Source: Kastovskya adunca ATA6-11-RM4 (GTDB taxonomy: Bacteria; Cyanobacteriota; Cyanobacteriia; Cyanobacteriales; Coleofasciculaceae). From it: a stretch of DNA of 64,000 bases. Shown piece after piece: positions 7,255 to 63,925 of the stretch; the stretch's first letter is position 1; each line of letters begins with the position of its first letter. Under the pieces are notes generated by a model, which was given only the letters and a program-made list of their open reading frames with translations, did no database searches and was not told the DNA's origin. The stretch lies in the NCBI GenBank assembly GCA_019359445.1, contig JAHHHJ010000002.1, positions 186,001-250,000 of the forward strand. The letters run 5' to 3'. The translations under genes were made by a program, and so were the position numbers.

Positions 7255-9039
7255 CTAAATAACATCCTTTACCTTACCCATTAAGGACTCTGTGAACTTA
7301 CCCCAGTCACTCCGCAGCTCTGAAAAATGTTCGCGTGGATTGTCATCCATTGATTCAGCTTTACCATAAGCAATGATGAGTAAGGTTAAAGCTTCTATAG
7401 AGCGCCTAGCCGCTTTGGTAGCTTCATCTCCAGAGATGCTCCCAGGCATTGCATCAGCAATACGACGAAGAGGTTCCCACATTTCTCGGTAAAAGCGATG
7501 CCGTGTATTAAAGGTAATAATCACTTTTCCGTCAATGTGCTGAGTATCTATCAGTAAATTACCTCGAATATCAACAAATTCAACAACAAACGGCAAGTCC
7601 TTGATAGTTTCTTGATATTCCTCTTGTTTCTTTTTGTCTTCACCGACAACATCACGTGCTAAATCTACGAAAATTTGCGATTTTTCTTGATTTGATATCT
7701 TGGTTTTAACACGACTTTTAGGCAGTGTTATGTTAGCTTCTTTAACTGCTTGAAGAACAAGGAGATTTTCTCCATTACCTTTATTTGATTTCCTTGCAAC
7801 TTCACCCCAAATATTATTTAGAGAATTGCGCGCTTCCTCAATGTAGCTGTTGAGAAAGGTGCGTATTTCAGTTCGCAATTCATCGTGAGGTTCTACGCCA
7901 CGTTTAACGTTACGAACTCCAAAATACGAATCTAACTCTGGTTTAAATGCAACTTCAATCCCAATAAATCGGTCGCGATCTTCAACACCTTTAGGAAAAA
8001 TTCGAGGAACATTTGTGTAATTAATCTCACGGTTAAGACGAACAAAGCTGATGGCACCTTGATTATCTTGTAATCGCAGTGTTTTTCGAGCAAAATTATC
8101 ATTAGCCATACCACGCTGGCGTGCTACCTCACTTGGATAAAGAGTAACTGTGACTGTACATATTGAGCCGCCAACTTTAATGTTCCCCTGTGCAATTTGA
8201 GTAGCAGAAAAATGATCTTTTGAAGCTTCTGGCAAAGGTAAAGAGTGTTCTTTGTTTTCCTTATTCGCTCCTTTTCGCAGACGTTGATAGTATTTGAAGA
8301 TTTCCCGATCCGCCCATGTTCCTTTCATAAGGTAAAGAGGATCGTATGGGAGGAGATCGGTTCCATCAAAAGAAATACGAATTCCTTCATTTAGAAAATA
8401 ACGAAACATCCGAGCTAGCTCATGTTTTACCTCTGCTTTCAAAGCTTGTGCATCAGAAGCTTGCTGACCTTCTTCAAGGCGATCAACTTTTGACCAAACT
8501 ACGATGGTTCCAGAGCCTTTGGGAGCGTAGGTAAAAATATTATCTGGAATTGATTCTATATTCGGAAAAGCAATGCCAACTGTTTCACCTTCCCTTTCCT
8601 GAATTAGAGCTTCCTCCAAATCAAACCATACATGATGCCATTCTTGTTCATTTGTACGACTCCAAACGTCAATGCGCTGACCATAATTGAGGGCAGCAAG
8701 TTTCGCACCCACTCCATATTTTCCGATTGTGTCAGTTCGCATATAACGAGTTGAATATCCTAATTGGAGATAGTGTTGTAGGACATCAAGTTCCATTCCA
8801 TCACCATCATCAATAATTATTATTTGGTGAATATGCCGCTTACCAGACTTAGTTTTAGATTCTTCAAAGTGCAGAGTAATATTGTTGGCGTTAGCTTCTA
8901 GGCTATTATCGATAACTTCACCTAGTGCGGCTGACAAACTATAGCCCGAATCCCGCAGTGACTGCAAAGCATACCCTGTTAAGACAACAGGAATTTTTTC
9001 ACTTGAGGCTGGTTGGTTAGTAGTTTCTTGAAGTACCAT
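7255..9039 (-). CDS. GHKL (MORC/MutL-like) ATP-binding protein
   Basis: 594 residues. The N-terminal third is a GHKL ATPase fold: N-box E41...D44-N45 in GEVIDNSLEANA, Mg/ATP motif DDGDGM at 77-82, and lid motif GKYGVGAKLAAL at 106-117. This is followed by an S5-like second half of the ATPase module and about 250 charged residues with no domain I recognise. No histidine-kinase DHp box or receiver is present, so it is a MORC/MutL/Hsp90-type ATPase. Related GHKL proteins occur in restriction and conflict loci. Preceded on the same strand by a small HTH gene and a 12-bp inverted repeat. Base composition is more AT-rich than its neighbours, which suggests acquisition. Confidence 0.85.
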   Translation of the reverse strand: MVLQETTNQPASSEKIPVVLTGYALQSLRDSGYSLSAALGEVIDNSLEANANNITLHFEESKTKSGKRHIHQIIIIDDGDGMELDVLQHYLQLGYSTRYMRTDTIGKYGVGAKLAALNYGQRIDVWSRTNEQEWHHVWFDLEEALIQEREGETVGIAFPNIESIPDNIFTYAPKGSGTIVVWSKVDRLEEGQQASDAQALKAEVKHELARMFRYFLNEGIRISFDGTDLLPYDPLYLMKGTWADREIFKYYQRLRKGANKENKEHSLPLPEASKDHFSATQIAQGNIKVGGSICTVTVTLYPSEVARQRGMANDNFARKTLRLQDNQGAISFVRLNREINYTNVPRIFPKGVEDRDRFIGIEVAFKPELDSYFGVRNVKRGVEPHDELRTEIRTFLNSYIEEARNSLNNIWGEVARKSNKGNGENLLVLQAVKEANITLPKSRVKTKISNQEKSQIFVDLARDVVGEDKKKQEEYQETIKDLPFVVEFVDIRGNLLIDTQHIDGKVIITFNTRHRFYREMWEPLRRIADAMPGSISGDEATKAARRSIEALTLLIIAYGKAESMDDNPREHFSELRSDWGKFTESLMGKVKDVI

Positions 9040-9115
9040 AATTTTCTCCTGACCTGCTGAATTAAACTGAAAGTGATTCTAGTTGTCAAATAATCAAATG
9101 TTTTGGAATGTTTTA

Positions 9116-9158
9116 CCCAAAGATCCCTAACTTAGAAAAAACCTTTGGGATCTTTGGG
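9116..9158. promoter_or_regulatory. Perfect 12-bp inverted repeat upstream of the ATPase
   Basis: CCCAAAGATCCC (9116-9127) and GGGATCTTTGGG (9147-9158) are perfect inverted copies 19 bases apart. They sit between the HTH gene stop (9168) and the ATPase start (9039), about 77 bases before the ATPase start codon. It is not followed by a T-run on the minus strand. It could be an operator for the HTH protein or an attenuator between the two genes. Confidence 0.6.
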
Positions 9159-9167
9159 ATTAAGGCA

Positions 9168-9650
9168 CTATGCAATGTCCTGTGTCTCCAGGTATGTCTG
9201 CACAATTTGGCGTACTTTCTGACGCAGCCTGTTTGCAGTGCGTTGAGAAATGCCACAAGCAGACGCTGTATCGGCTAAACTTCTGCCATTGAGCAGATCA
9301 TGGAAACATTGGCTCAAATTCTTACCGGATGCATATACTACTGCCCGCAGTTGTTCTTCTATCTCCAGCGCAACACAAGGTTCAGCATCTTCAGTCCAAG
9401 TAGGAGTGAACGAGGCTGCTTTTTGCCATAGACGAGTCTGACGGACTTTTGCCCGTCCGAGGCAGAACCTCGCATTTCTAATTAAGTCGTAGCGAAAAAA
9501 CTTTAAGTTTTGTTCCTGGCTCTGAGAGTTGATCGCTAGCGAGATTGCATATTCGATAATCTCTGCTTCAGAGGAACCAGGGGTTAGCATCTGGAGGCGT
9601 TGCTGTAGCTCAAGAACAGTACGCCAGCGCTTGTCTAGGACTTTTGCCAT
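9168..9650 (-). CDS. Small protein with C-terminal sigma-70-region-4-like HTH
   Basis: 160 residues, Arg/Gln-rich and helical. Residues about 122-148 (RSLADTASACGISQRTANRLRQK) form a helix-turn-helix like sigma region 4 or LuxR-type domains, so DNA binding is likely. The N-terminal ~110 residues are not recognised. It is 128 bases upstream of the GHKL ATPase on the same strand, which suggests it regulates, or works with, that gene. Confidence 0.65.
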   Translation of the reverse strand: MAKVLDKRWRTVLELQQRLQMLTPGSSEAEIIEYAISLAINSQSQEQNLKFFRYDLIRNARFCLGRAKVRQTRLWQKAASFTPTWTEDAEPCVALEIEEQLRAVVYASGKNLSQCFHDLLNGRSLADTASACGISQRTANRLRQKVRQIVQTYLETQDIA

Positions 9651-9965: not shown

Positions 9966-10151
9966 CTACTTTGACTTTCGTTTGGACTTGGGGGGCGTTC
10001 GGTGTGCGCCAAAGGATTTTTCACTGCGGTAGCGAAGCCACACCCGCAACTGCTGCGGAATCTTGTCTTTTTGTTCTTTGATCAGCGTGTTGTAAAGGGC
10101 TAAAGCGCGATCGCGTTCTCCACTTCTATTCAGACGGATTTGAGCTAATAT
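9966..10151 (-). pseudogene. 3' relic of an unidentified gene, overlapping the rpn end
   Basis: In the minus strand a 61-codon open frame without a usable start reads through ERDRALALYNTLIKEQKDKI and ends in a basic tail and a stop at 9966-9968. The RALALYNTLI stretch resembles a TPR-type helix pair. It overlaps the last 26 bases of the Rpn gene in another frame. The pattern suggests the 5' part of a gene was replaced when the Rpn gene was placed here. Identity unknown. Confidence 0.4.
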
Positions 10152-11052
10152 TCAACCAAGCTTCTAAATCTGCTTGATTATTAAAGTCCAATAGCGCTTC
10201 AGCCAAATTCTCTAATTGAGTAACAGATAATTGCTGGATGCGTTTCTGTAATTCTGTACTTACTACACCGATACGCCGAGAAAGCTGGCGCATAATCAGA
10301 TCTTGAGCCGCTTCCTGACGAGCTTCCTCACGGACTTCTTGACGAACTTCTTGCTGAATTTCTTGACGAACTTCTTGCTGAATTTCTTCTCGAACTTCCT
10401 CACGGACTTCCTGATAGTACCTGGTCTTTTTCAGATCGCTGAGTCCAAACATTCTTGCCAACTCCTGACGCCCGATACGCGGCAATTTGTATAAAACAAT
10501 TGTTTCTATCAAATCTAGCACTTCCCGCTGGGATGCTTCATCTGCAAGTTCGGAGCGTGCCTTTTCGACTAACTGTGTGACTCGCTGAGGAGTCCGCTTT
10601 TTCGTCTCGACAACCAACTTGATGATACCAACCCCTAGAGAAGTCTCCGGTGTCTCCTCCAGCTCATTTAGGTACAAACGATTGACTTGGAAACTTTCTA
10701 GCAAAATCTGATAAGGCTCTACTTCAGTTGGTTCTAAGCTCCGTCTGGGAAAGATAACAATTCCTCGCCAAGGTTGAGTCGGTGCATAGAGACGTAGATA
10801 GAGAAAAATCTCACAAAAAAAGCGAGCATAAAACTCTGGATCTTTTTGAAACTGAACTTCTAAGAAATAAATAGGTTTATGGGAGAGATTCGATACAGGA
10901 AGAAATACTCCATCAATCCTAAATGCCGTCTGTTTTAATTCGACAGAAGCAAAATTATAAGCATCGGCTTCAGACGCCTGACGCTCAATCAGTTCAAAAA
11001 AGGTGCCTGGAAAGGTTTGAAATAAACGATAAAAAATGGAGTCCGTTTTCAT
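10126..11052 (-). CDS. Rpn/PD-(D/E)XK family nuclease with DUF4351
   Basis: 308 residues, member of the Rpn ('recombination-promoting nuclease', PDDEXK_2) group very common in cyanobacteria. The N-terminal nuclease region includes the D-x-V/F and E-x-Q core FRIDGVFLP and YFLEVQFQ. The middle carries a charged heptad-like stretch of repeated EVREE/IQQEVRQ units (DNA repeat about 10317-10418), and the end is a DUF4351-type domain closing in EALLDFNNQADLEAWL. Proposed role in DNA cleavage or recombination; the native substrate is unknown. A paralogue lies at 19698-20630. Confidence 0.88.
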   Translation of the reverse strand: MKTDSIFYRLFQTFPGTFFELIERQASEADAYNFASVELKQTAFRIDGVFLPVSNLSHKPIYFLEVQFQKDPEFYARFFCEIFLYLRLYAPTQPWRGIVIFPRRSLEPTEVEPYQILLESFQVNRLYLNELEETPETSLGVGIIKLVVETKKRTPQRVTQLVEKARSELADEASQREVLDLIETIVLYKLPRIGRQELARMFGLSDLKKTRYYQEVREEVREEIQQEVRQEIQQEVRQEVREEARQEAAQDLIMRQLSRRIGVVSTELQKRIQQLSVTQLENLAEALLDFNNQADLEAWLNISSNPSE

Positions 11053-11216: not shown

Positions 11217-12134
11217 CTAGGGCAACTCCACAGAAGTCGGTTTAGCAATGTGAGGCAAACCCCAGCCCAATTTTTCTCGCAGGATTCTGAAAAACTCTGG
11301 GGGTTGTACGCGGATAAAGCGTGCAGAATAGCGTGATCGCTCTATATGTAACCGATCGTCTGGCAAGACATAACATCCTGCATTCCCATCAACAACCATC
11401 ACCATCTGATTCGGCGTGGCTGGCAGAATGCTCACTGGCTCAGTGTCAGCAAAAACTAATGCCCTAGAGGCGAGAGAATGGGGGCAAATTGGCACCAATT
11501 GCAGCACAGGTACCCCTGGTGCTACCACTGGGCCACCTGCACTCAGGGAGTAAGCTGTCGAACCCGTTGGCGTCGAAACAATCACACCATCTGCTGCAAT
11601 ATCTACAGGCGCATGATTGCCCACCTGAATTTCAAAATGGCACATGCTGGTCAAAGGTTCTCGGTGAATCACCATCTCATTAAGGCAAAGCGCCTCCCAG
11701 GAAATGGCACTATCTCGCCACACCTGCACCAATAGCATCGCCCGTTCTTCAACTTCATAATCCCCAGCCATGGCTCGTTCTAAGGCTTGGGTGAGCTGAT
11801 TCAAATACACCTCTGTCAAAAAGCCCATGTGACCTGTATTCACCGCCAACAGAGGGATACCACAGGGCGCAACCTGGCGGAAGGCGGCTAAAACCGTGCC
11901 ATCTCCCCCAAGAACGATCGCAAAAGCCATCTCCTCATCAAAACCAGGCGATGCCAGCCCTTCAATGGGAGTACGGCGAATCGGAGAGTCAGGGCGAGAA
12001 TAGCCCAGAATGCCGCCAACGCCAGTTGCCATGCAGACATCCCAACCAGCATCACGCAGCTTTTCCTTCAGTTCCATGGCAACACGACAAGCCACGGGTT
12101 TAATATCGTTGTAAATAATGCCTGCTTTCGGCAC
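11217..12134 (-). CDS. nadK: NAD kinase
   Basis: Phosphorylates NAD to NADP; cytosolic. About 305 residues from GTG 12134, chosen because family members begin [12 protein letters not shown]; a TTG three codons upstream is possible. GGDGT is at 76-80, NTGHMGFL at 99-106 and [11 protein letters not shown] at 188-198, all diagnostic. Cyanobacteria usually carry two NAD kinases; the 40-residue insert before GGDGT fits one of them. Single gene with about 370 bases of upstream sequence. Confidence 0.95.
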
Positions 12135-12506
12135 GCTTACCAATCCGGCTAGAGTTCAAACGAAATCAGCAAATTAGCCAAAGAATTCTAGAGAAAAATC
12201 CCGGCGATTGTCTCAAATCAGCAGTCTACTCACAGAAGGTACTGGTCATATAGACAAAATAGCCAGTCTTTCTTGAGTAATTGCTGATTAAACAACCGAC
12301 ATGGAGCAGAATTCAGTTTTGCTTCTAATTAGCTAGGTTTATCGTGACATATTTTGCCCATCCCTGCGTCCGCCTAAAGAGGCTCCTGTAAAAATAGGGG
12401 CGTTTAGACTAGGGAAACAGGGGATGACGATTCGATATAGTGCCATGATGGGCTATTTTAATATCATCCCAGACGGCAGTGTTGACTAGGAAAAAAGTTC
12501 TGGGGT
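12135..12506. other. Intergenic region between nadK and ycf39
   Basis: Upstream of nadK (minus strand) and downstream of ycf39. No gene, strong hairpin or repeat seen; likely promoter of nadK. Confidence 0.4.
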
Positions 12507-13490
12507 TTATTTGGAAGACTTGAAAGGCGTCTTTTTCTGAGACTTCTTTTTTCCTTTGTTTTTCTCGTAGTCGATTTCCTTGAGTTTTTTCATAATTCGG
12601 CTGAAGTACTCTTGCATATAGGCTTCTAAGGTCGTTGTCTTACTCTCATCTAGCCCAAACACCTTGTAAACTTCATCCATTGGCGCATCGAGAGGTTTAC
12701 CTGATGCCAAAACCTCTGTAAATGCCAGTCTATCTGCAACATTCCAGCCCCATTGAAAAAACCGCAGCCCCCGGCGTATTGTCCGCAACAAGTTAAGCGG
12801 CATTCTGGCAATTTTGGCATCTCGTCCTGATAGGCGTTCGCACAAGCGGACAATTTCATAAGCTCCCCAAGCGCGAGAGCCAACGACGGGGAAGATTTGA
12901 TTTTCTGTCTCTGGAACTTCCAGAGCACGGACGGCAAACTTGGCAATATCCTGAGTATCCATGTAGGCAATCGGTGCGCTATCCCCTGTAATCCACACAG
13001 CCTGTCCGTCCAAAATGGGAATAGCATACTGACCGATTAGCCCTTGCAGAAAGCCGCAAGGTCTTAAGATGGTGTATTTTAATCCAGATTCGGCTAGGAA
13101 AAGCTCTGTACACCGCTTAATTTCCATCAAGGGGACGTGGGAATAGTTCTGGGCGTTGAGAATCGAAAAGAAGACAAATCGTTCTATCCCCGCCGCCGCC
13201 GCTGCTTGAATCAGCGCTACTTTGCCGTCCCAGTCTACCTGTTTGATAGTCAGGTTATCAGTTGGGCGGGAGGTTGCCGCATCAATGACGGCGGTAATAC
13301 CTTGTAGAGCAGGTATTAGTGTTTCTGGCTGACAAAGATCGCCTTGGACAATTTCGGCCCCCCACTCTTTTAAGAATGTTGCCTTTCTGGGGCTGCGAAC
13401 TAGGCAGCGTACCTGATGCCCCTCGTCTAAGGCGCGACGAACTACCTGTCTTCCCAAGGTTCCAGTTGCACCAACCACCAATAAATTCAT
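12507..13490 (-). CDS. ycf39: Ycf39-type NmrA-like SDR, photosystem II assembly factor
   Basis: 327-residue atypical short-chain dehydrogenase of the NmrA type, conserved in cyanobacteria and plastids. The NAD(P)-binding GATGTLGRQV is at 7-16; the Ycf39 landmarks GDLCQPETL, FFSILNAQNYSHVPLM and ILRPCGFLQGLIGQYA follow. Ycf39 acts with high-light-inducible proteins in delivery of chlorophyll to D1 during photosystem II assembly. The C-terminus has a lysine-rich tail of about 25 residues. petM is 147 bases upstream on the same strand, a pairing often seen in cyanobacteria. Confidence 0.93.
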   Translation of the reverse strand: MNLLVVGATGTLGRQVVRRALDEGHQVRCLVRSPRKATFLKEWGAEIVQGDLCQPETLIPALQGITAVIDAATSRPTDNLTIKQVDWDGKVALIQAAAAAGIERFVFFSILNAQNYSHVPLMEIKRCTELFLAESGLKYTILRPCGFLQGLIGQYAIPILDGQAVWITGDSAPIAYMDTQDIAKFAVRALEVPETENQIFPVVGSRAWGAYEIVRLCERLSGRDAKIARMPLNLLRTIRRGLRFFQWGWNVADRLAFTEVLASGKPLDAPMDEVYKVFGLDESKTTTLEAYMQEYFSRIMKKLKEIDYEKNKGKKKSQKKTPFKSSK

Positions 13491-15772: not shown

Positions 15773-17026
15773 ATGCTAAACATGACGTGGGAATTTAAGC
15801 TAGAGCCAACCGCCGAGCAGGTTTCAGGGATTGAGCACACTTTAGATGTGTGTCGCAATGTCTGGAATTTTGCGCGGCGGGAACGTAAAGACTGGCTGGA
15901 TTCTCGGAAGTCTCCGGTGAATGCGTGCTCAATTCGGCAGGAGTTTATCCTGCCAGCCGACGCGCCATTCCCGAACTACCACGTTCAGGCCAAAGGCTTA
16001 ACTAAAGCCAAGGCTGACTTCCCTAGACTCAAGACCGTCAATGCCCAAGTGCTCCAGCAAGTCCTTAGAAAGCTAGATGGCGCTTGGGAATCATGGCGGC
16101 TAAAGCGGTCAGGGTTTCCAAGGTTCAAAAAACCTAACCGGATGCGTAGCTTTGTCTTCCCTCAGATGCTCAAAAACTGCATCACGGGCGAGGGGATTAA
16201 GCTACCTCAACTGGGCTTGGTGAGGGTGCGTTGGTCGCGGGAGATACCGGATCTCTTCGAGGTGAAGCAAGCCCGAATCGTCCGCAAGGCGTCGGGTTAC
16301 TTCGTCATGCTTAGCCTTCAGTCTGATGTTGAAATCCCCGCTGCGGTGCCTCACGGGCACCCCATCGGGATTGACGTTGGGCTAGAATACTTTCTTTCAA
16401 CCTCAGACGGAAAACAAGTCAAGCGGCCTCGCTTTTTTGGCCGTCTGCAACGCAAGCTGAAATTGCTGCAACGCAGGCTGAAGACGAAGCACAAGGGGTC
16501 GGCTAACTGGCTAAAACTCCAGAAGAAGATTGGCAGAGTCCATCAACGCATGGCCGATACTCGCAAAGACTGGCACTTTAAGCTGGCTCATCACCTCTGC
16601 GACAGCGCAGGGATGATCTTTGTGGAAGACCTAGACTTCCGCATTATGGCCAAGGGGATGCTGGGTAAGCACACCCTAGATGCTGGGCTGGGTCAATTCA
16701 CGAACCAGATCTTGCCCTGGGTGTGTTTCAAGCGCGATGTGTATTACGGCAAGGTTGATGCTCGGGGCACCTCTCAGGAGTGCCCGGACTGTGGTGCGGA
16801 GGTTCGCAAAGACCTCTCAACTAGAATCCATCATTGCCACAACTGCGGGTCAATCAAGCCTCGTGATGTGGCAGCAGGGCAAGTAATTTGCACCCGTGGG
16901 CAACGGGGAATAGAAAATGCCTGTGGAGTCGAGGTGGCGGGGGCTGAGGTCACTCAGTCTAGTCAACTGGCGCTGAAGCAGGAAATCTTCGGAGCGATCC
17001 GGGGAATCACCACGCATAATCTTTGA
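15773..17026 (+). CDS. tnpB: TnpB, RNA-guided endonuclease of IS200/IS605 group
   Basis: 417 residues, full length. RuvC residues D201 (GIDVG), E285 (FVEDL) and D365 (PRDVAA) are present, as is the zinc ribbon C337-C340 / C355-C358, so the nuclease looks intact. No tnpA is nearby: a TnpB-only (IS1341-type) insertion. Known TnpB proteins are guided by an omega-RNA made from the element's right end. Two hairpins (17007-17038, 17045-17066) overlap and follow the stop codon and could be part of that RNA. Higher GC than some neighbours. Confidence 0.93.
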   Translation: MLNMTWEFKLEPTAEQVSGIEHTLDVCRNVWNFARRERKDWLDSRKSPVNACSIRQEFILPADAPFPNYHVQAKGLTKAKADFPRLKTVNAQVLQQVLRKLDGAWESWRLKRSGFPRFKKPNRMRSFVFPQMLKNCITGEGIKLPQLGLVRVRWSREIPDLFEVKQARIVRKASGYFVMLSLQSDVEIPAAVPHGHPIGIDVGLEYFLSTSDGKQVKRPRFFGRLQRKLKLLQRRLKTKHKGSANWLKLQKKIGRVHQRMADTRKDWHFKLAHHLCDSAGMIFVEDLDFRIMAKGMLGKHTLDAGLGQFTNQILPWVCFKRDVYYGKVDARGTSQECPDCGAEVRKDLSTRIHHCHNCGSIKPRDVAAGQVICTRGQRGIENACGVEVAGAEVTQSSQLALKQEIFGAIRGITTHNL

Positions 17027-19697: not shown

Positions 19698-20630
19698 TCA
19701 TCCACTCACTCTATCCAGCCATTCAATCAGCTCTGCTTCGCTAGAAAAGTCTAGAAGCGCCTCTCCCAAATCTTCAACCCGCTCGATCTCTAGGCGGCTA
19801 ATTCGCTCCCTCAAATCGAGCCGCAAAGTTCCCAAACGACGATTTAATTGCCGCAGCACTAATGCTACTTCTCTTTGTTGTCCCTGGTGCAATCCGCGCC
19901 GGATTCCCTCTTCCATCCAGCTTGTAACAATTTCCATAACCCTCTCCTCTTCAGTTAGTCCCATCCTATCAAGCTCAACCTCAAACGCCGCTTCCTCCCT
20001 TGCATCTAGCCGCAAGTAGGTATCCACAAACCCTGAAATCAACCGCATCCGGGCTGGATCTAGCTTTAGAGTCGCCAACAGACGTAAACACTCCGCCTTC
20101 ACCTTCGGACGTTCCTCCGGTTGAATCTTCATTTTTGCCATTAATGCTGCTGCTACGGGATTGCGCTGCTGCAAAAAATCCCGCCAATTCATCTGATTGA
20201 GTTGAATGGTCGTAAAATTGAATTCCAACACCTTCAATTCTGGGAAATCTACCCGATATTGTGTTGTCTCTACTCGTTGTGGTTCATCGAAGGAAAACAC
20301 CACAACTGGATAGACGGGTAACAAATACTCCTGATGCAACTTAGCAAAATACAAAAACATCCGCCGAGCAAAATTCGACTCCGTGTAAGACTGATTCTCC
20401 ACATGGATAATAAAAAATGCCGACTGCTCGCGAAACCGCACTTGAGCAACAATATCTAGGAGTTTGCGATCGCCAGAGACAAGATCGGTAAAATACTCTT
20501 GGGGTAAAAAAGTAATAGAGTCTCGTTCCAGAAAACCCGCGACATCTGGCAGAAATAACTCAATGAACTCTACAAAAAACGTTGAGAGGAGTTCTTTGAA
20601 CAACTGGTCATGGTTAATTTGCTCACTCAT
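19698..20630 (-). CDS. Rpn/PD-(D/E)XK family nuclease with DUF4351 (second copy)
   Basis: 310 residues. The N-terminal nuclease core shows LLDIVAQVRFREQSAFFIIHVENQSY (D ... H-x-E-x-Q pattern), typical of cyanobacterial Rpn/PDDEXK_2 proteins; the C-terminal DUF4351 region ends in EALLDFSSEAELIEWL, as in the copy at 10126. The two are clearly divergent paralogues. Its ATG (20628-20630) overlaps the stop codon of the upstream hsdM relic (20623-20625), so its translation may now depend on sequence derived from that gene. Confidence 0.88.
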   Translation of the reverse strand: MSEQINHDQLFKELLSTFFVEFIELFLPDVAGFLERDSITFLPQEYFTDLVSGDRKLLDIVAQVRFREQSAFFIIHVENQSYTESNFARRMFLYFAKLHQEYLLPVYPVVVFSFDEPQRVETTQYRVDFPELKVLEFNFTTIQLNQMNWRDFLQQRNPVAAALMAKMKIQPEERPKVKAECLRLLATLKLDPARMRLISGFVDTYLRLDAREEAAFEVELDRMGLTEEERVMEIVTSWMEEGIRRGLHQGQQREVALVLRQLNRRLGTLRLDLRERISRLEIERVEDLGEALLDFSSEAELIEWLDRVSG

Positions 20631-21180: not shown

Positions 21181-22452
21181 GTGACTGATTTTTCTCCTTT
21201 GGTACACGACACAACGAAGGCTCAAAGCGAAAGCGTAGAGACAGTGTTATCAAGATTAAAAAGCGGGCGTGTCTATATTCCTGATTATCAACGTGATGCC
21301 GAGCAGTGGGGTTCCCGTAAAAAATCACTCTTTATTGAATCAATTCTCAACAATCTGACAATTCCAGCATTTTTCTTCTGTGAAGATGAAAATCGCAATT
21401 ATGAAGTTGTTGACGGACAGCAAAGACTCTCAACAATCTGGGATTTCTTTGAGAATAAACTTACAGTAAGTGATGACCCAAAAATCGACTATATAGCGCC
21501 TGCGTCAGCCTTGTATGCGGGGAAAAAGCATAATCAACTCATTCCGACACTGAAAAATATATTCAGTGATTATCCACTTACCATAATCTACCTGCCAAAA
21601 AATCTAGAGTTACAAACAAAACTGGAAATTTTCCGGCGTATCAACGAAGGTGGGACTCCTCTTTCAGGACAAGATATTCGTTTGTCCTTTTACATTCAAT
21701 CTAAGAGTGTAACTTTCATACGCTTAGTTGGGATTTACAGTAGTTCCACGGAAGCTGCGATAAATGACTTAGAGACTGATGAAGAACCTGAAGTCATCAA
21801 AAAACCATTTCAACGAATGCTGGAACTAGCCGAGAAAAAAGGAATTTATAACCCTTGGGATAGCCTCCCATCAAGCAGAGACCTTTGGTATGAATGGTGG
21901 CAAGGTAAGGATAAGGCAAAAGGACAAACACCTTCCCTGATGTTTCTTTGGTATTTAGTTTGCCTAGAACGTGAGAAACTAGACGGGCTTGTTAAAAGAC
22001 CAAAACATTTACCTGTTAACTTTGGAGGTTTAACTGAGACTGCTCTAGATATTTACTGCGCTCAACTTCAATATCAAGAGCTAGGTAAAGGTGTAGATGA
22101 CAAAAATATATTATCTCCTTTTAAAGTTATACATGGGGATTACTTTGAGCAATTTGCAATTTGGATGCAGTTCATATTATCTAGAGGACTTCCGGGGATT
22201 AGTGTTGACAAATACAAACAGTTAGCTTTGTTCATAGCTGGAGCCGTTGAATTAAATATATCGCCCCAAAAGCTTACTGAAAAACAGTGGAAAAAAGCTG
22301 GGGAATTCATTCGCAATCCTCGAAAAACAGGTAAGGATGTTCTGAATGATGAGGACGGATATCCAGAACCCAAGGGACGTTGGGGAGGTGCAAAGGGACA
22401 AAAGCAGCAGTGCGAAAAAACAGTAGAGATTGTCAAAATCTTATTAAAATAA
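21181..22452 (+). CDS. DUF262 (ParB-like, GmrS-type) protein
   Basis: 423 residues. The N-terminal DUF262 domain has YIPDYQRD...W near residues 31-41, FIESIL, and the VVDGQQRLSTIWDF signature near 80-93 typical of the nucleotide-using ParB/Srx-like fold of GmrSD and BrxU type IV restriction proteins. A predominantly helical C-terminal region follows. The stop codon overlaps the next gene's ATG (TAATG), so the two are translationally coupled. With the HNH partner this looks like a split DUF262-HNH defence nuclease. Start GTG/ATG context: GTG at 21181 is the first in-frame start. Confidence 0.87.
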   Translation: MTDFSPLVHDTTKAQSESVETVLSRLKSGRVYIPDYQRDAEQWGSRKKSLFIESILNNLTIPAFFFCEDENRNYEVVDGQQRLSTIWDFFENKLTVSDDPKIDYIAPASALYAGKKHNQLIPTLKNIFSDYPLTIIYLPKNLELQTKLEIFRRINEGGTPLSGQDIRLSFYIQSKSVTFIRLVGIYSSSTEAAINDLETDEEPEVIKKPFQRMLELAEKKGIYNPWDSLPSSRDLWYEWWQGKDKAKGQTPSLMFLWYLVCLEREKLDGLVKRPKHLPVNFGGLTETALDIYCAQLQYQELGKGVDDKNILSPFKVIHGDYFEQFAIWMQFILSRGLPGISVDKYKQLALFIAGAVELNISPQKLTEKQWKKAGEFIRNPRKTGKDVLNDEDGYPEPKGRWGGAKGQKQQCEKTVEIVKILLK

Positions 22453-37355: not shown

Positions 37356-37411
37356 ACTCAAACTATGACGATAGATTGCACCAGTGCCTACATACAGCCA
37401 AAACCAACACG

Positions 37412-37535
37412 AGCGATCGCTCCTATTTATGCCGTGCCGTTGCCAATCCGTTACATCTACACGTAAAAGAAATTGGTTTGAGCATCTGCAATCTGAACAA
37501 ACCCTCCATCTGTGGGCAAAGACACCTTATTTCTA
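37412..37535 (+). pseudogene. Frameshifted 3' fragment of an RluA-type synthase
   Basis: The DNA aligns by eye with the end of the RluA gene at about 49730-49853: SDRSYLCRAVANPLHLHVKE in one frame, then after a frameshift LQSEQTLHLWAKTPYF, versus GDRLYGCRAVNSRLHLHARE and SGQTLHLQAKTPF in the intact gene. It lies between xisI and the GIY-YIG gene and would add false N-terminal residues to the latter. Confidence 0.8.
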
Positions 37536-37564
37536 CAGATTCAGTCATAGAAATAGTCACGACA

Positions 37565-39163
37565 ATGGGAATACTGAAATCAGAAGTATGTAAAACAATA
37601 CTGGAGGTACGCCATTTGATTGCTGATGCAGTAATTTTGCAACTGCCAAAAATTACTTTACACGCGAAACAGCTACTCCCTGAATATTCAGGAATCTACT
37701 ACGTTCTGGATGAAAGTAATAATGTTTGGTACATAGGGCAGGCAAAAAATATCCGTAAACGCTGGCAAGGTAAATCTCATCATCGCATCTACCAACTGGA
37801 AGTTCAGAAAAAGAAACATTTCACTATTTACTATGAGCAAGTTAGCGAATCTCAACTAGGCAGCCTAGAGAAGCAACGCATTGAGAAATACCATCCGCAT
37901 TTAAACTCTAGTCCGGTAAAGACGAAAAAGGTACGCCCAGTAGAAACACTATTAAGGGAAACCATAACTGCGATCGCTGATTTTGCATTCTTATTAGGAG
38001 TAGAGCCACCTAGAAAAGAAATTGAGTCTGAAATTAGCATTAACTGGCTAGCACAGAAGAAGGTATTAGGATTAAGTGTCATTCATATTTGTCTAGACTT
38101 AACTGCTCTCAAGGAAATATTTAAGCCAGAGTCAATAGAAGAGCAAGAAGCACTTATTAAAACAGCATTTAGCACTCGCAAGGCTTATGCTAGTAAATGG
38201 GATAACTTTTATTCTTTTATATATCGGCTCTCGATAAATGGCTATGTAGTTGAAGTTAATTACTGGAACCGTTTCTTTCCTAAAGAAGAACCCAAGGGGC
38301 TTCGAGAATATACGCAGACTACTTTAGCTCAGGAGACTATTAGGGCAATAACCCCTGAGTCACTTGCTAAAATTCAAAATCAGGCTGATCGAGAGGAGCA
38401 ATCTGCTTTCTACCTAAAGAGACTCAATCCTTATAGCTCAGACCTTATAAAACCACTTTTCAATGAACTAGTGGATAGTGAGACTGCTAAGAAAATCATG
38501 GTAAATATTAGTGAGGAATACAAAGCAGGAATGCGCGGAATAGGTAGTCGCTCACGACATATTAAGTCCAAACTTATTAGCTCAGAATTTATTACTATTG
38601 AAGAGCTACTGATCGAGCGAGGAATTGACACCCAGAAATATAGTAGAGGTGGAGTAATCAACTTTTCTGGAGGCAGAGATCGAATGGGTCTATATATTAA
38701 ATGTTTTAGTGTTGACCTAAAGCTTCCTGGTAAATATGAAACAGATGCTAATAACCAGAAGTATCCTGTTTATTATAATCTAGCCTACGGAATACTAAAT
38801 AACAAAAAAGCAAATGCTGCACCTTGTCAATTTGATAACGTGTATCTTGTAGCTAGTGTTGATAAGAAGGGATGGCTCTTGGTTGAAGAGTATCTGAAAG
38901 ATTTTGCTAGCCCTGCTGCTACTAACTTAAGTAATGGGGTAGGCTATATAGAGAAGTTCTATATATCTGCGCGTAAGTATATAGTGCCTGCTAAGGTCAA
39001 TATAAAACTGGAGAGTATTGGATATAGTGCTTGGATTCCTTTTGGACTAACCGAGGAGTTTCCTACCTTTGTATCTGTTAAAGAAGAGATTCGTAAGCGG
39101 TTAGAAAGTTGTAGTTTACCAGGACTCAAATTAGCATTTAAACAGGAAACTATCGAAAAATAG
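37565..39163 (+). CDS. GIY-YIG nuclease domain protein, 532 residues
   Basis: Start ATG 37565 preferred over 37376, because the 63 upstream codons run through a decayed RluA fragment. Residues 43-114 form a complete GIY-YIG nuclease: GIYYV at 43-47, YIG at 56-58, R64/R66, catalytic E102 and N114. The remaining 400 residues are not recognised: an alpha/beta region and blocks such as FSGGRDRMGLYIKCFSVDL and NNQKYPVYYNLAYGILNNKK. AT-rich compared with flanks, which suggests horizontal transfer. Could be a restriction or mobile-element nuclease. Confidence 0.8.
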   Translation: MGILKSEVCKTILEVRHLIADAVILQLPKITLHAKQLLPEYSGIYYVLDESNNVWYIGQAKNIRKRWQGKSHHRIYQLEVQKKKHFTIYYEQVSESQLGSLEKQRIEKYHPHLNSSPVKTKKVRPVETLLRETITAIADFAFLLGVEPPRKEIESEISINWLAQKKVLGLSVIHICLDLTALKEIFKPESIEEQEALIKTAFSTRKAYASKWDNFYSFIYRLSINGYVVEVNYWNRFFPKEEPKGLREYTQTTLAQETIRAITPESLAKIQNQADREEQSAFYLKRLNPYSSDLIKPLFNELVDSETAKKIMVNISEEYKAGMRGIGSRSRHIKSKLISSEFITIEELLIERGIDTQKYSRGGVINFSGGRDRMGLYIKCFSVDLKLPGKYETDANNQKYPVYYNLAYGILNNKKANAAPCQFDNVYLVASVDKKGWLLVEEYLKDFASPAATNLSNGVGYIEKFYISARKYIVPAKVNIKLESIGYSAWIPFGLTEEFPTFVSVKEEIRKRLESCSLPGLKLAFKQETIEK

Positions 39164-61124: not shown

Positions 61125-62690
61125 ATGTTTGAGCAAACCTTCAAAAATATTGATGACGTTCTCTGGAAGGAGGCGGGCTGCACCACAGAGCTAGATTATA
61201 CGGAGCAAACGTCCTGGCTGCTGTTTCTCAAGTATCTGGATGACTTGGAGCATGAAAAGGCGCTAGAGGCGGAACTGGTTGGGAAACCTTATGAATTTAT
61301 TATTGATGAGGCGCATCGCTGGTCAGTGTGGGCAGCCCCCAAAAAAGCTGATGGGACGTTGGATCATGATAATGTGCTGATTGGTGACGATCTGATTGAT
61401 TATGTCAACCGTCAGCTATTCCCCTATTTACAGGGATTCAAGCAGAGGGCTACTAGTCCAGACACAATCGAATACAAGATTGGGGAAATTTTTAGCGAGA
61501 TTAAGAATAGGTTTCAAAGCGGCTACAGCTTGCGGGATGCACTGGAATATGTCGATGAGCTACGGTTTCGATCGCAACAGGAGAAACACGAGCTATCCCA
61601 TCTCTATGAAGCCAAAATCAAAAATATGGGTAATGCGGGGCGCAATGGTGGGGAATATTACACACCGCGTCCGTTGATTCGAGCGATGATTCAGGTGGTG
61701 AAGCCGAAGATTGGCGATCGCATTTATGATGGGGCTTGCGGTTCGGCGGGGTTTTTGTGCGAGAGTTATGAATATTTACGTCGGGGCTTCGACTTCGCTC
61801 AACCGAACGGTAAGCTGACGACAAAAGAGCTAGAGACACTTCAGACTAATACCTTTACGGGTAAGGAAAAGAAGAGTTTGGCGTATGTGATTGCCATCAT
61901 GAATATGATTTTGCATGGCATTGATGCACCAAATATTATCCACACCAACACCCTGACGGAAAATCTCAGTGACATTCAGGACAAGAATCGTTTTGATATC
62001 ATCTTGGCAAATCCGCCATTTGGGGGGAAGGAACGCAAGGAGGTACAGCAGAATTTTCCGATAAAGACTGGGGAGACGGCATTTCTGTTTTTGCAGCACT
62101 TCATCAAAATGCTGAGGATGGGCGGTAGTGCGGCAGTGGTTATCAAAAATACGTTCCTCTCCAATTCGGATAACGCTTCGCGGGCGTTGCGTCAAGAGCT
62201 TTTGACTAGTTGCAATCTGCACACGATTTTGGATTGTCCGAGTGGGACTTTTATCGGGGCGGGGGTGAAAACGGTGGTGCTGTTTTTTGAGAAAGGAAAG
62301 TCCTTTGACGCTGTTCCCTTCGACTTCGCTCAGGGAACGGGGATGCCTTTATTTTCTCAAGGAAAACCGTTAAGTGAGGGAATGGCAACTCAGAAAATTT
62401 GGTATTACCAACTCGATCCGGGGCGTAGTTTGGGTAAAACTAATGCGCTGAATGATGACGACTTGCGGGAGTTTGTGGAGTTACAGGCTACGTTCGCAGA
62501 GTCGGAAAAGTCTTGGCTGGTGGATATTGCTGATATAGATCGGGTGACGTTCGATCTGTCGGTGAAGAATCCGAATAAGGCTGAGGAATCGCTGTTACGA
62601 GAACCGCAGGAAATTTTAGATGAAATTGCTGCGTTAGATGTAGAAAGTGCGGAGATTCTGGCAGGAATTGGAGGGATGGTATGTCGTTGA
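61125..62690 (+). CDS. hsdM: Type I restriction-modification methyltransferase HsdM
   Basis: 521 residues, N6-adenine methyltransferase subunit of a type I system. N-terminal HsdM domain (SWLLFLKYLDDLE), GGEYYTPRPLIRAM near 176-188, motif I DGACGSAGFL at 202-211, catalytic NPPF at 296-299. Two FDFAQ peptides (222-226, 399-403) come from in-frame palindromic repeat DNA. Overlaps hsdS by 10 bases. Not related in detail to the relic at 20.6 kb. Likely cargo of the element that starts at 60589. Confidence 0.95.
   Translation: MFEQTFKNIDDVLWKEAGCTTELDYTEQTSWLLFLKYLDDLEHEKALEAELVGKPYEFIIDEAHRWSVWAAPKKADGTLDHDNVLIGDDLIDYVNRQLFPYLQGFKQRATSPDTIEYKIGEIFSEIKNRFQSGYSLRDALEYVDELRFRSQQEKHELSHLYEAKIKNMGNAGRNGGEYYTPRPLIRAMIQVVKPKIGDRIYDGACGSAGFLCESYEYLRRGFDFAQPNGKLTTKELETLQTNTFTGKEKKSLAYVIAIMNMILHGIDAPNIIHTNTLTENLSDIQDKNRFDIILANPPFGGKERKEVQQNFPIKTGETAFLFLQHFIKMLRMGGSAAVVIKNTFLSNSDNASRALRQELLTSCNLHTILDCPSGTFIGAGVKTVVLFFEKGKSFDAVPFDFAQGTGMPLFSQGKPLSEGMATQKIWYYQLDPGRSLGKTNALNDDDLREFVELQATFAESEKSWLVDIADIDRVTFDLSVKNPNKAEESLLREPQEILDEIAALDVESAEILAGIGGMVCR
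61787..61810. repeat. FDFAQ-coding palindromic repeat, copy 1
   Basis: CTTCGACTTCGCTCAACCGA plus ACGG inside hsdM; half of a known dispersed repeat type whose full form pairs GTTCGG...CCGAAC. In frame it codes FDFAQPNG. Confidence 0.7.
62313..62338. repeat. FDFAQ-coding palindromic repeat, copy 2
   Basis: GTTCCC-TTCGACTTCGCTCA-GGGAAC: outer 6-bp arms pair exactly. In frame it codes VPFDFAQGT within hsdM. Confidence 0.8.
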
Positions 62691-63925
62691 AGATGAATAC
62701 TAAGCAGTTGCCAGAGAGATGGACTGAGAAGAAATTTGGTGAAATTGCCCTCTTAAACCGTGGTCATAATCCACCCAAAAGCCAATTTATTCATAAACCA
62801 AGAGAAGGTTACGTTAGATTTTACCAAATTCGAGACGGCAACAACGACGACTATGAAGTGTATGTTCCGGATACGCCTAAGCTGCATAAAGTAGAACCTG
62901 ATGACATTTTAATGGTAGCTTACCGACATATTGGTAGAGTTTTTAGAGGTGCTAAGGGAGCATTTAACGTAGCTCTCTGCAAAATCACCAACAAAGACCG
63001 TTCCATTATTGACAATGATTATCTTTTTTACATAATTCCAACTGAATTTGTTCGCGGTGAATTAATGAAGCAAGCTGAACGCTCGTTAATTCCATCCATG
63101 TCGGTTAAGCACCTGGCAGAGATAAAAATTCCAGTTCCACCACTTCCTGAACAAAAGCGGATTGTGGCAATTTTAGATGAGGCGTTTGAGGGGATTGATA
63201 GAGCGATCGCAAACACCAAAAAGAACCTCGCCAACTCCCGCGAACTATTTGAAAGTTATCTAAACGCCATCTTTACCCAGAAAGGCGACGGATGGGTAGA
63301 CGCAGCGATTGAAGATCGTATCAAGTTTATTGATTATCGTGGTCGTACACCCAATAAGACAGAAGGCGGAATGCGGCTTATTACGGCTAAAAACGTAAAA
63401 ATGGGATTTTTACAACTAGAACCACAAGAATTCGTCAATCCAGATATTTATGATGATTGGATGACTAGAGGAATTCCCCAAAAAGGTGATGTTTTATTCA
63501 CGACTGAAGCACCACTAGGCAATGTGGCTCAACTAGATACAGATGAAAAAGTAGTTTTTGCCCAAAGAGTCATCATTATGCAGCCAGATGAGAAATTCAT
63601 TAACAAAACTTTTTTGAAATTCCTGCTTCTATCAAACATAATTCAGCAGCGCATACAGAACAAAGGTACTGGAGCAACAGCACAAGGTATTAAAGCTAGT
63701 TTACTCAAAAAAATTCCGATTTCATTTCCTTCTGATCTTCTTATTCAAGAAGCTATAGTTTTAAAACTTGAAACTCTTGAAGCCGATACTAAGCGACTCG
63801 AAACCATCTACCGCCAAAAACTCGCCGCCCTCAACGAACTCAAACAATCCATCCTGCAAAAAGCCTTCACTGGCGAACTCACCGCAGACACCCCAAAAGC
63901 TGCTAAAGAGGCAATTGCAGCATGA
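62681..63925 (+). CDS. hsdS: Type I restriction specificity subunit HsdS
   Basis: 414 residues with two target-recognition domains: TRD1 about 15-150, the conserved helical spacer PPLPEQKRIVAILDEAFEGI about 150-205, TRD2 about 205-345, and a second spacer ending KLAALNELKQSILQKAFTGEL. Sets the recognised DNA sequence for HsdM and an HsdR that must lie beyond the window. Its stop overlaps the next ATG (ATGA). Confidence 0.93.
   Translation: MSLKMNTKQLPERWTEKKFGEIALLNRGHNPPKSQFIHKPREGYVRFYQIRDGNNDDYEVYVPDTPKLHKVEPDDILMVAYRHIGRVFRGAKGAFNVALCKITNKDRSIIDNDYLFYIIPTEFVRGELMKQAERSLIPSMSVKHLAEIKIPVPPLPEQKRIVAILDEAFEGIDRAIANTKKNLANSRELFESYLNAIFTQKGDGWVDAAIEDRIKFIDYRGRTPNKTEGGMRLITAKNVKMGFLQLEPQEFVNPDIYDDWMTRGIPQKGDVLFTTEAPLGNVAQLDTDEKVVFAQRVIIMQPDEKFINKTFLKFLLLSNIIQQRIQNKGTGATAQGIKASLLKKIPISFPSDLLIQEAIVLKLETLEADTKRLETIYRQKLAALNELKQSILQKAFTGELTADTPKAAKEAIAA

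What the first reader, a model, noticed from the sequence alone, without database searches (positions are those of the whole stretch)
7255..9650. Two-gene GHKL (MORC-like) ATPase and HTH cassette with a 12-bp inverted repeat
A 594-residue protein with intact GHKL motifs, no kinase parts, and an unassigned 250-residue C-terminus follows a sigma-4-like HTH gene; a perfect CCCAAAGATCCC inverted repeat lies between them. GHKL/MORC-type ATPases are known in restriction and conflict loci. The low GC of the ATPase gene suggests transfer. I know no named system with exactly this pair.
Basis: partly seen in the sequence, partly recalled or inferred. Interest (0 to 1): 0.65.

Follow-up and report, generated by a model that had tools for sequence, protein, structure and literature searches.

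The report
Sulfur-tagged-DNA defence cassette missing its nuclease
Two neighbouring cyanobacterial genes are what remains of a three-gene module (DNA-binding protein, DNA-cutting enzyme, MORC-like ATPase) that in other bacteria sits beside the genes putting sulfur into the DNA backbone, so it is probably part of a defence that tells own from foreign DNA.

Summary
In detail: an intact 594-aa GHKL ATPase (9039..7255), an intact 160-aa HTH protein (9650..9168) and a perfect 12-bp inverted repeat between them. The pair is not a complete two-gene system. In most relatives outside this group a GIY-YIG nuclease gene lies between the two; its active-site residues are invariant in 10 of 10. It is missing here and in several other cyanobacteria, and three Nostocaceae keep a deletion scar. 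Their ATPases stay under purifying selection. Outside cyanobacteria the cassette lies next to DNA-phosphorothioation (PT) genes: SspB/SspC in 5 loci and DndCDE in 3, 8 of 8 loci on genome contigs (about four independent events), where such genes occur in about 7% of related genomes. The window's genome has DndCDE on another contig, but DndC is in 78% of its order, so that co-occurrence is no evidence. Best reading: a PT-linked restriction/anti-invader module, present here as a nuclease-less derivative; function is inferred. The MORC-specific motif is absent in 21 of 21. The inverted repeat is not conserved. More distant GHKL relatives form a second PT-linked cluster (SF2 helicase-GHKL-PLD). 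My literature searches found no GHKL-PT link; GIY-YIG (URI) genes at Dnd loci are in print.

The parts
7255..9039 (-). GHKL ATPase gene, 594 aa, intact
   Evidence: PF13589 E 2.8e-21; full-length relatives 51-69% identical
8614..8943 (-). HATPase_c_3 (GHKL Bergerat fold) domain, residues 33-142
   Evidence: N, G1 and G2 boxes conserved in the 12-row alignment
7258..8613 (-). S5/transducer-like middle and conserved C-terminal alpha/beta region, residues 143-594, no Pfam family over cut-off
   Evidence: AlphaFold2 model of medium confidence (pLDDT 63.8) matches Hsp90 and MORC2 chains
9040..9167 (.). intergenic gap: the place where relatives carry the GIY-YIG nuclease gene; none here and none found elsewhere in the held genome at E 0.001
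9116..9158 (.). perfect 12-bp inverted repeat (9116-9127, 9147-9158), 19-nt spacer; RNA fold of the gap z -2.2 on the minus strand, not listed as terminator-like; not conserved
9168..9650 (-). HTH protein gene, 160 aa: conserved N-terminal region and C-terminal sigma-region-4-like HTH

Best explanation
The pair is a nuclease-less derivative of a three-gene module, HTH - GIY-YIG nuclease - GHKL ATPase, that works with DNA phosphorothioation (PT). Proposed mechanism: the GHKL ATPase dimer closes on DNA in an ATP-dependent way, as MutL and MORC do; the HTH protein helps load or place it; DNA lacking the PT mark of the host's Dnd or Ssp enzymes is held and, in the full module, cut by the GIY-YIG nuclease. 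In the window's lineage the nuclease gene was lost, and the HTH and ATPase are kept, either as a non-cutting block on unmarked DNA or with another nuclease in trans. Shown: gene order, absence of the nuclease here, its deletion and continued purifying selection on the ATPase in three Nostocaceae, linkage in cis to PT genes outside cyanobacteria, DndCDE elsewhere in the window's genome. Inferred: PT sensing, DNA clamping, anti-invader action, and that the remaining pair is functional.
For: Cis linkage to PT genes in 8 of 8 non-cyanobacterial cassettes on genome contigs: SspB/SspC in Pseudomonas and 4 Comamonadaceae; DndCDE in Nonomuraea, G1388 and G1190, where DndB-like (by eye), DndC, DndD, DndE, GIY-YIG and ATPase follow each other on one strand. 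Baselines: SspB in 7 of 98 genomes of the family-level group, DndC in 7 of 98 of the order-level group, both counts holding carriers themselves. All 14 distinct carrier genomes tested have DndC over cut-off or SspB (16 handles, 2 duplicates). GIY-YIG gene: Y38, Y48, G50, R51, R59, H63, E87, N104 invariant in 10 of 10; UvrC chains are the only PDB profile hits at E up to 1 (best 0.004) and the first 7 Foldseek rows (best E 2e-3) for a model of pLDDT 77.6. Deletion scars in L003, L005, L006 against L004. ATPase dN/dS among these three 0.13-0.15, bootstrap limits 0.07-0.21, no stop codon, against 2 of 2000 simple neutral replicates free of stops.
Against: No experiment. In cyanobacteria the cassette was never in cis with PT genes (0 of 10 genomes, in the stretches read), and DndC is in 190 of 243 genomes of the order, so DndC in the 8 distinct cyanobacterial carriers is expected by chance (0.78^8 is about 0.14). 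The Nocardiopsis plasmid copy has no PT gene in the stretches read; its chromosome was not searched. Defence genes cluster, which could bring PT genes and this module together without joint action. The four Comamonadaceae loci are close kin, and Nonomuraea and G1388 are sisters, so the 8 loci are about four events.
Confidence: 0.62

Rival explanations
1. A general anti-phage system that merely shares defence islands with PT genes; the three proteins act on invaders by themselves, by a nuclease controlled by a GHKL ATPase, as proposed for VcSduA (GHKL-Shedu).
For: The Nocardiopsis plasmid copy and the cyanobacterial copies are not in cis with PT genes in the stretches read; other GHKL-nuclease defences exist (PMC12137116, passages read).
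Against: Linkage is to two different PT modification systems (Ssp and Dnd), in one case directly after the dnd genes on the same strand (G1190), and more distant GHKL relatives are often PT-linked as well.
Confidence: 0.2
2. The window pair is a decaying leftover: after loss of the nuclease the HTH and ATPase have no function and have simply not yet broken.
For: The nuclease gene is missing in at least four places of the trees among cyanobacteria (window; L003/L005/L006; L007/L085; L119), all with PT genes unlinked. ATPase dN/dS after loss (0.13-0.15) is higher than in pairs with the nuclease gene (0.026-0.070), so constraint may be relaxed.
Against: dN/dS is still far below 1 and there are no stops among three genomes that appear to share one deletion; both ORFs are intact in the six cassettes of this kind with HTH and ATPase aligned.
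Confidence: 0.2
3. Transcription-type regulation: the HTH is a sigma-like regulator acting on the inverted repeat, and the ATPase is a sensor without link to DNA defence.
For: Sigma-region-4-like HTH; the repeat is unlikely by chance.
Against: The repeat is not seen in relatives; the ATPase profile resembles MORC, topoisomerase VI B and MutL, not histidine kinases; the third gene of relatives is a nuclease.
Confidence: 0.06

Closest known systems
paraMORC / prokaryotic MORC GHKL-S5 ATPases in restriction-modification operons (Iyer 2008, PMC2292703; sections 4 and 5 read)
   Same: GHKL domain with intact motifs, S5-like middle, C-terminal extension, company of nucleases, patchy distribution across phyla
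   Different: No MORC motif (0 of 21); the partners are a GIY-YIG nuclease and an HTH protein, not an SFII helicase and methylase; linked to phosphorothioation. GIY, URI, dnd, PAPS and phosphorothioate do not occur in its main text
PT-linked restriction modules SspFGH, PbeABCD, DndI, DndFGH, SspE
   Same: Separate effector module beside dndBCDE or sspBCD genes
   Different: SspF has a Walker A motif and SspH an FtsK-like end (PMC8092258, passages); PbeA is a helicase, PbeC SMC-like, PbeB and PbeD small (PMC6459918, passages); GHKL, MutL and GIY-YIG do not occur in the DndI paper (PMC11662687, outline and word search); DndFGH per passages of PMC10853773; SspE seen only as PADLOC models and paper listings
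URI (GIY-YIG) nucleases at the borders of Dnd loci (Rakesh 2024, PMC10853773; section 17 read, other parts as passages)
   Same: The GIY-YIG gene described here, where next to dndCDE, would fall under this remark
   Different: That paper proposes a stand-alone suicide effector, and its main text has no GHKL, MORC, MutL, HSP90 or HATPase; supplements not seen
MZA protein MzaB; BbrUII/HgiDII restriction enzyme
   Same: Nearest curated models of the GHKL region (73.7 and 50.1 bits)
   Different: Far below their cut-offs of 850 and 550 bits
VcSduA, a GHKL-Shedu nuclease (PMC12137116, passages)
   Same: GHKL ATPase thought to control a nuclease
   Different: Its nuclease is a fused DUF4263 domain; no DUF4263 match in this protein

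Membership tests
GHKL ATPase superfamily | N, G1 and G2 boxes of the Bergerat fold | tested here: met
MORC family (Iyer 2008) | GhXhhpXXRhl motif in the S5 domain | tested here: not met
   0 of 21 aligned rows
paraMORC-like GHKL-S5 ATPases of restriction systems | GHKL plus S5 fold, no MORC motif, neighbourhood with nucleases | tested here: inconclusive
   GHKL met; S5 only suggested by a medium-confidence model; nuclease neighbour in relatives, absent in the window
Phosphorothioation-linked effector module | lies beside dnd or ssp modification genes | tested here: met
   for the family: 8 of 8 non-cyanobacterial cassettes on genome contigs, 0 of 1 on a Nocardiopsis plasmid, 0 of 10 cyanobacterial genomes
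Phosphorothioation-linked effector module, window copy | lies beside dnd or ssp modification genes | tested here: not met
   no SspB, SspC, DndC, DndD or DndE match in the 64-kb window; DndCDE on another contig
Phosphorothioation-linked effector module | activity depends on PT marks | not testable with these tools
   needs experiment
SspFGH | Walker A SspF and FtsK-like SspH | tested here: not met
   no P-loop or FtsK family matched by either window protein; reference features
GIY-YIG nuclease (relatives' middle gene) | GIY and YIG tyrosines, Arg, Glu, Asn of the active site | tested here: met
   10 of 10 relatives; Pfam PF01541 found in 6 of 10 at E 0.1, best 2e-6; fold match to UvrC. No copy found in the window's genome
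MzaB | NCBIfam NF041932 over 850 bits | tested here: not met
   73.7 bits
Shedu (VcSduA type) | DUF4263 nuclease domain | tested here: not met
   no DUF4263
Sigma-70 region 4 / HTH | curated Pfam cut-off reached | tested here: not met
   HTH and sigma matches of the window protein are sub-threshold

The most novel reading that the evidence does not exclude
GHKL (MORC-like) ATPases are an unrecognised class of readers of the phosphorothioate mark, used in at least two PT-linked modules: HTH-GIY-YIG-GHKL and SF2 helicase-GHKL-PLD. Where the nuclease has been lost repeatedly while the ATPase stays conserved, as in this window, the ATPase with its HTH partner silences or compacts unmarked DNA without cutting it, a bacterial parallel of MORC-based silencing of unwanted DNA.
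Probability: 0.22. Interest if true: 0.85.

Novelty: new variant of a known kind. Interest (0 to 1): 0.6.

Why it matters
PT modification genes are widespread (DndC in 190 of 243 genomes of this cyanobacterial order), and print reports that of 3416 taxa with Dnd modification genes and a linked endonuclease only 806 have DndFGH (PMC10853773, section 17), so what uses the mark is an open question. A GHKL module tied to both Dnd and Ssp is a concrete, testable candidate, and the repeated nuclease loss makes the question of non-cutting defence by MORC-like ATPases directly testable.

Tried and rejected
A complete two-gene system: rejected, since the GIY-YIG gene is present between the two genes in other lineages and scars mark its loss in three relatives. 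The inverted repeat as conserved operator or terminator: not supported, for lack of conservation and of a terminator-like call. Phage origin: no match in 50,697 phage records at E 1e-10 and one weak partial match (34%) in viral contigs. Dnd co-occurrence in cyanobacteria as evidence: rejected by the 190 of 243 baseline.

Distant GHKL relatives were meant as a negative control for PT linkage, and the control failed. Of 16 re-fetched cyanobacterial loci (14 of the hits, plus 2), 13 lie in clusters of GHKL with an IscS-like gene and a helicase and/or PLD gene, and 11 of these have SspB, SspC or SspD in the stretch read (L108 and L112 do not); L118, L119 and L120 are not of this kind. Of 6 plasmid loci fetched (of 8 distant plasmid hits), 4 lie beside Ssp genes; L103 has a lone SspD-like gene 9 kb away and L101 has none. 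L111 and the plasmid L102 look like one and the same replicon (48,007 bases), so they count once. G1026 (L090) has SspBCD beside a 30%-identity ATPase, but with a helicase and without HTH or GIY-YIG; I first counted it with the cassette and took it out.

Vibrionaceae plasmid relatives (L049-L051, 32-36% identity) lack both the HTH and the GIY-YIG gene; they have a DndC-like gene two or three genes downstream, below the DndC cut-off in the two scanned (L049, L051), and were not counted as PT-linked. SspH of Streptomyces (PMC9137472, passages) is a single-domain 142-residue protein and no relative by architecture.

Literature searches: (10 of 10; open-licence papers only, no preprints; no supplements could be read). 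One search used whole-word matching of a truncated word and is uninformative. One search found two papers holding both phosphorothioat- and GHKL: PMC12137116, where the passages show the former only in the reference list, and PMC5448812, seen as a listing only. One search listed 15 of 51 papers.
Full report
What is in the window. Two minus-strand genes, HTH (9650..9168, 160 aa) then GHKL ATPase (9039..7255, 594 aa), with a perfect 12-bp inverted repeat between them. The ATPase matches HATPase_c_3 (E 2.8e-21) and, far below their cut-offs, MzaB and BbrUII models. Against the PDB a profile of 21 rows finds MORC2 first (E 8e-10), then other MORCs, topoisomerase VI B, PMS1 and MutL; the medium-confidence model (pLDDT 63.8) matches Hsp90 and MORC2 chains. 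The MORC motif of Iyer 2008 is absent from all 21 rows. The HTH is sub-threshold in Pfam. The window's genome shows one copy of each gene at E 0.001.

Relatives and the missing gene. One search found 11 full-length relatives (51-69% identity). One search found 7 of 388 genomes of the order at E 1e-40 (own genome included), one search found 2 of 399 around Paracidovorax and 3 of 345 around Nonomuraea at E 1e-60 (each centre included), 12 plasmid records at E 1e-20. Two pairs are one genome seen twice (L004 = G662, L007 = G429: contigs of equal length). In L004, L008, L009, L010-L013, L084, L048, L089, L088 and L120 a GIY-YIG gene lies directly before the ATPase. Ten of these 12 were aligned: the tyrosines, Arg, His, Glu and Asn of a GIY-YIG active site are invariant. 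UvrC chains are the only PDB profile matches at E up to 1 (best 0.004), 6 of 10 members reach Pfam GIY-YIG at E 0.1 with a best of 2e-6, and the model (pLDDT 77.6) matches UvrC in the first seven Foldseek rows, the best at E 2e-3. The gene is not seen beside the ATPase in the window, L003, L005, L006, L007, L085 and L119, and a genome-wide search with the L004 protein finds no copy in G000, G670, G672, G673, G429 or G417 (6 of 8 genomes searched; present in G662 and G165). In the outer relatives L119, L120 and L089 the first gene matches the HTH profile weakly (E 7e-4, 5e-5, 0.01), in L088 not significantly.

Loss, not gain. L003, L005 and L006 keep the beginning of the nuclease gene and the stretch after it, aligned to L004, with the body deleted; L003 has lost somewhat more, with the same right-hand end. 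The tree puts L004 (with the gene) as sister to these three, the window outside them, and L007/L085 outside that; the proteobacterial and actinobacterial branches of the cassette have the gene. With L119 this makes four separate losses in cyanobacteria. The Vibrionaceae plasmid relatives lack both small genes, which may be a further loss. No scar is recognisable in the window itself; the hairpin sequence occupies that place. The ATPases of L003, L005 and L006 have dN/dS 0.13-0.15 (bootstrap limits 0.07-0.21) and no stops, while random mutation at the L003-L005 distance leaves 2 of 2000 frames open. Pairs with the nuclease gene give 0.026 to 0.070 (L010-L013, L011-L013, L011-L012, L009-L084), so constraint may be somewhat relaxed. 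The HTH gene gives 0.22-0.25 among the three, and 0.71 in one very close pair with few changes (L007-L085).

Link to phosphorothioation. In Pseudomonas and four Comamonadaceae the neighbours are SspB (DUF4007; E 1e-58 and 6e-87 in the two scanned, found in all five genomes) and SspC (PADLOC E 0 for L010; BLAST for the others), then an SspD-like gene by eye, with weak DndC-model matches in the four Comamonadaceae; L091 also has SspE. In Nonomuraea the cassette follows DndC-DndD-DndE (DndD appears as two ORFs); in G1388 DndCDE lies about 5 kb away; in G1190 DndB-like (by eye), DndC, DndD, DndE, GIY-YIG and ATPase follow each other on one strand. That is 8 of 8 non-cyanobacterial cassettes on genome contigs, about four independent events; the Nocardiopsis plasmid has none in the stretches read. 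Baselines are 7 of 98 for SspB, the centre genome included, and 7 of 98 for DndC, Nonomuraea and G1190 included. All 14 distinct carriers tested have DndC over cut-off or SspB. In cyanobacteria the cassette is in cis in 0 of 10 genomes (flanks of 6 to 10 kb as a rule; the window's long side is longer, L120 is only 3.5 kb), and DndC is in 190 of 243 genomes, so co-occurrence there proves nothing. The window's genome has an SBD-HNH-like gene (102 bits, cut-off 180), DndC, DndD, DndE and a dnd-associated methyltransferase on contig 4, plus a PbeC-like ATPase about 3 kb before DndC. I did not search the genome for DndFGH.

A second PT-linked GHKL cluster. Distant relatives fetched as controls lie in clusters of SspB-SspC-SspD, a DndB-like gene, SF2 helicase, GHKL, PLD and IscS, in varying completeness: 13 of 16 cyanobacterial loci, 11 of them with an Ssp gene in the stretch, and 4 of 6 plasmid loci (one plasmid appears in both counts). 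In the tree nine of the GHKL proteins of this kind form a clade apart from the HTH/GIY-linked ones, while L103 and L090, which also sit beside a helicase, form a separate pair. PADLOC names the helicases weakly as PbeA and the GHKL proteins weakly as MzaB.

Mechanism. From family knowledge (recalled): GHKL-S5 ATPases dimerise on ATP and clamp DNA, and can license nucleases (MutL). I therefore propose an ATP-gated clamp, placed by the HTH protein, sparing PT-marked DNA and handing unmarked DNA to the GIY-YIG enzyme. PbeABCD blocks virus DNA replication without visible cleavage (PMC6459918, passages), which makes a non-cutting mode plausible for the nuclease-less form. Another nuclease in trans, such as the SBD-HNH-like gene beside DndC, is equally open.

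Novelty. My searches found no paper that links GHKL ATPases with phosphorothioation (word searches in PMC10853773, PMC12839542, PMC2292703 and PMC8011034; limits are told under tried and rejected). Rakesh 2024 does report URI/GIY-YIG genes at the borders of Dnd loci. Hence a new variant of a known kind: a new composition of PT-linked effector module, with the window holding a stripped form of it.

Noticed in passing
L105-L117, L099, L100, L102, L104: Second PT-linked cluster: SF2 helicase (weakly PbeA-like), GHKL ATPase and PLD-family protein with Ssp genes and a cysteine desulfurase, common among distant GHKL hits in cyanobacteria.
   Followed up: partly
L075:3031-14116 (window's genome, contig 4): PbeC-like ABC ATPase, SBD-HNH-like nuclease, DndC, DndD, DndE and a dnd-associated methyltransferase near a contig end.
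   Followed up: partly
L049, L050, L051 (Vibrionaceae plasmids): ATPase relatives at 32-36% identity with a divergent DndC-like PAPS reductase gene two or three genes downstream; in L051 also a nucleotidyltransferase-ThiF-SAVED (CBASS-like) row upstream.
   Followed up: no
L090:8540-10252 and 11408-13297: G1026 carries two different GHKL ATPases, in different clades of the tree, beside SspBCD and a PbeA-like helicase.
   Followed up: partly
L094:16586-18952: A further protein (788 aa) with a weak match to the ATPase profile (E 1e-4) directly after the SspD-like gene in Pseudomonas sp. BN417; no PADLOC match.
   Followed up: no
window 10126-11052 and 19698-20630, minus strand: DUF2887/DUF4351 (Rpn-type) gene beside the cassette, and a similar-looking second one by eye.
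   Followed up: no
window 37376-39163, plus strand: 595-aa ORF with a GIY-YIG-like motif by eye; not matched by the lost gene's family.
   Followed up: no
window 61125-63925, plus strand: HsdM-like and HsdS-like genes by eye at the window's end; DUF262-like gene at 21181-22452 and TnpB-like gene at 15773-17026, also by eye.
   Followed up: no
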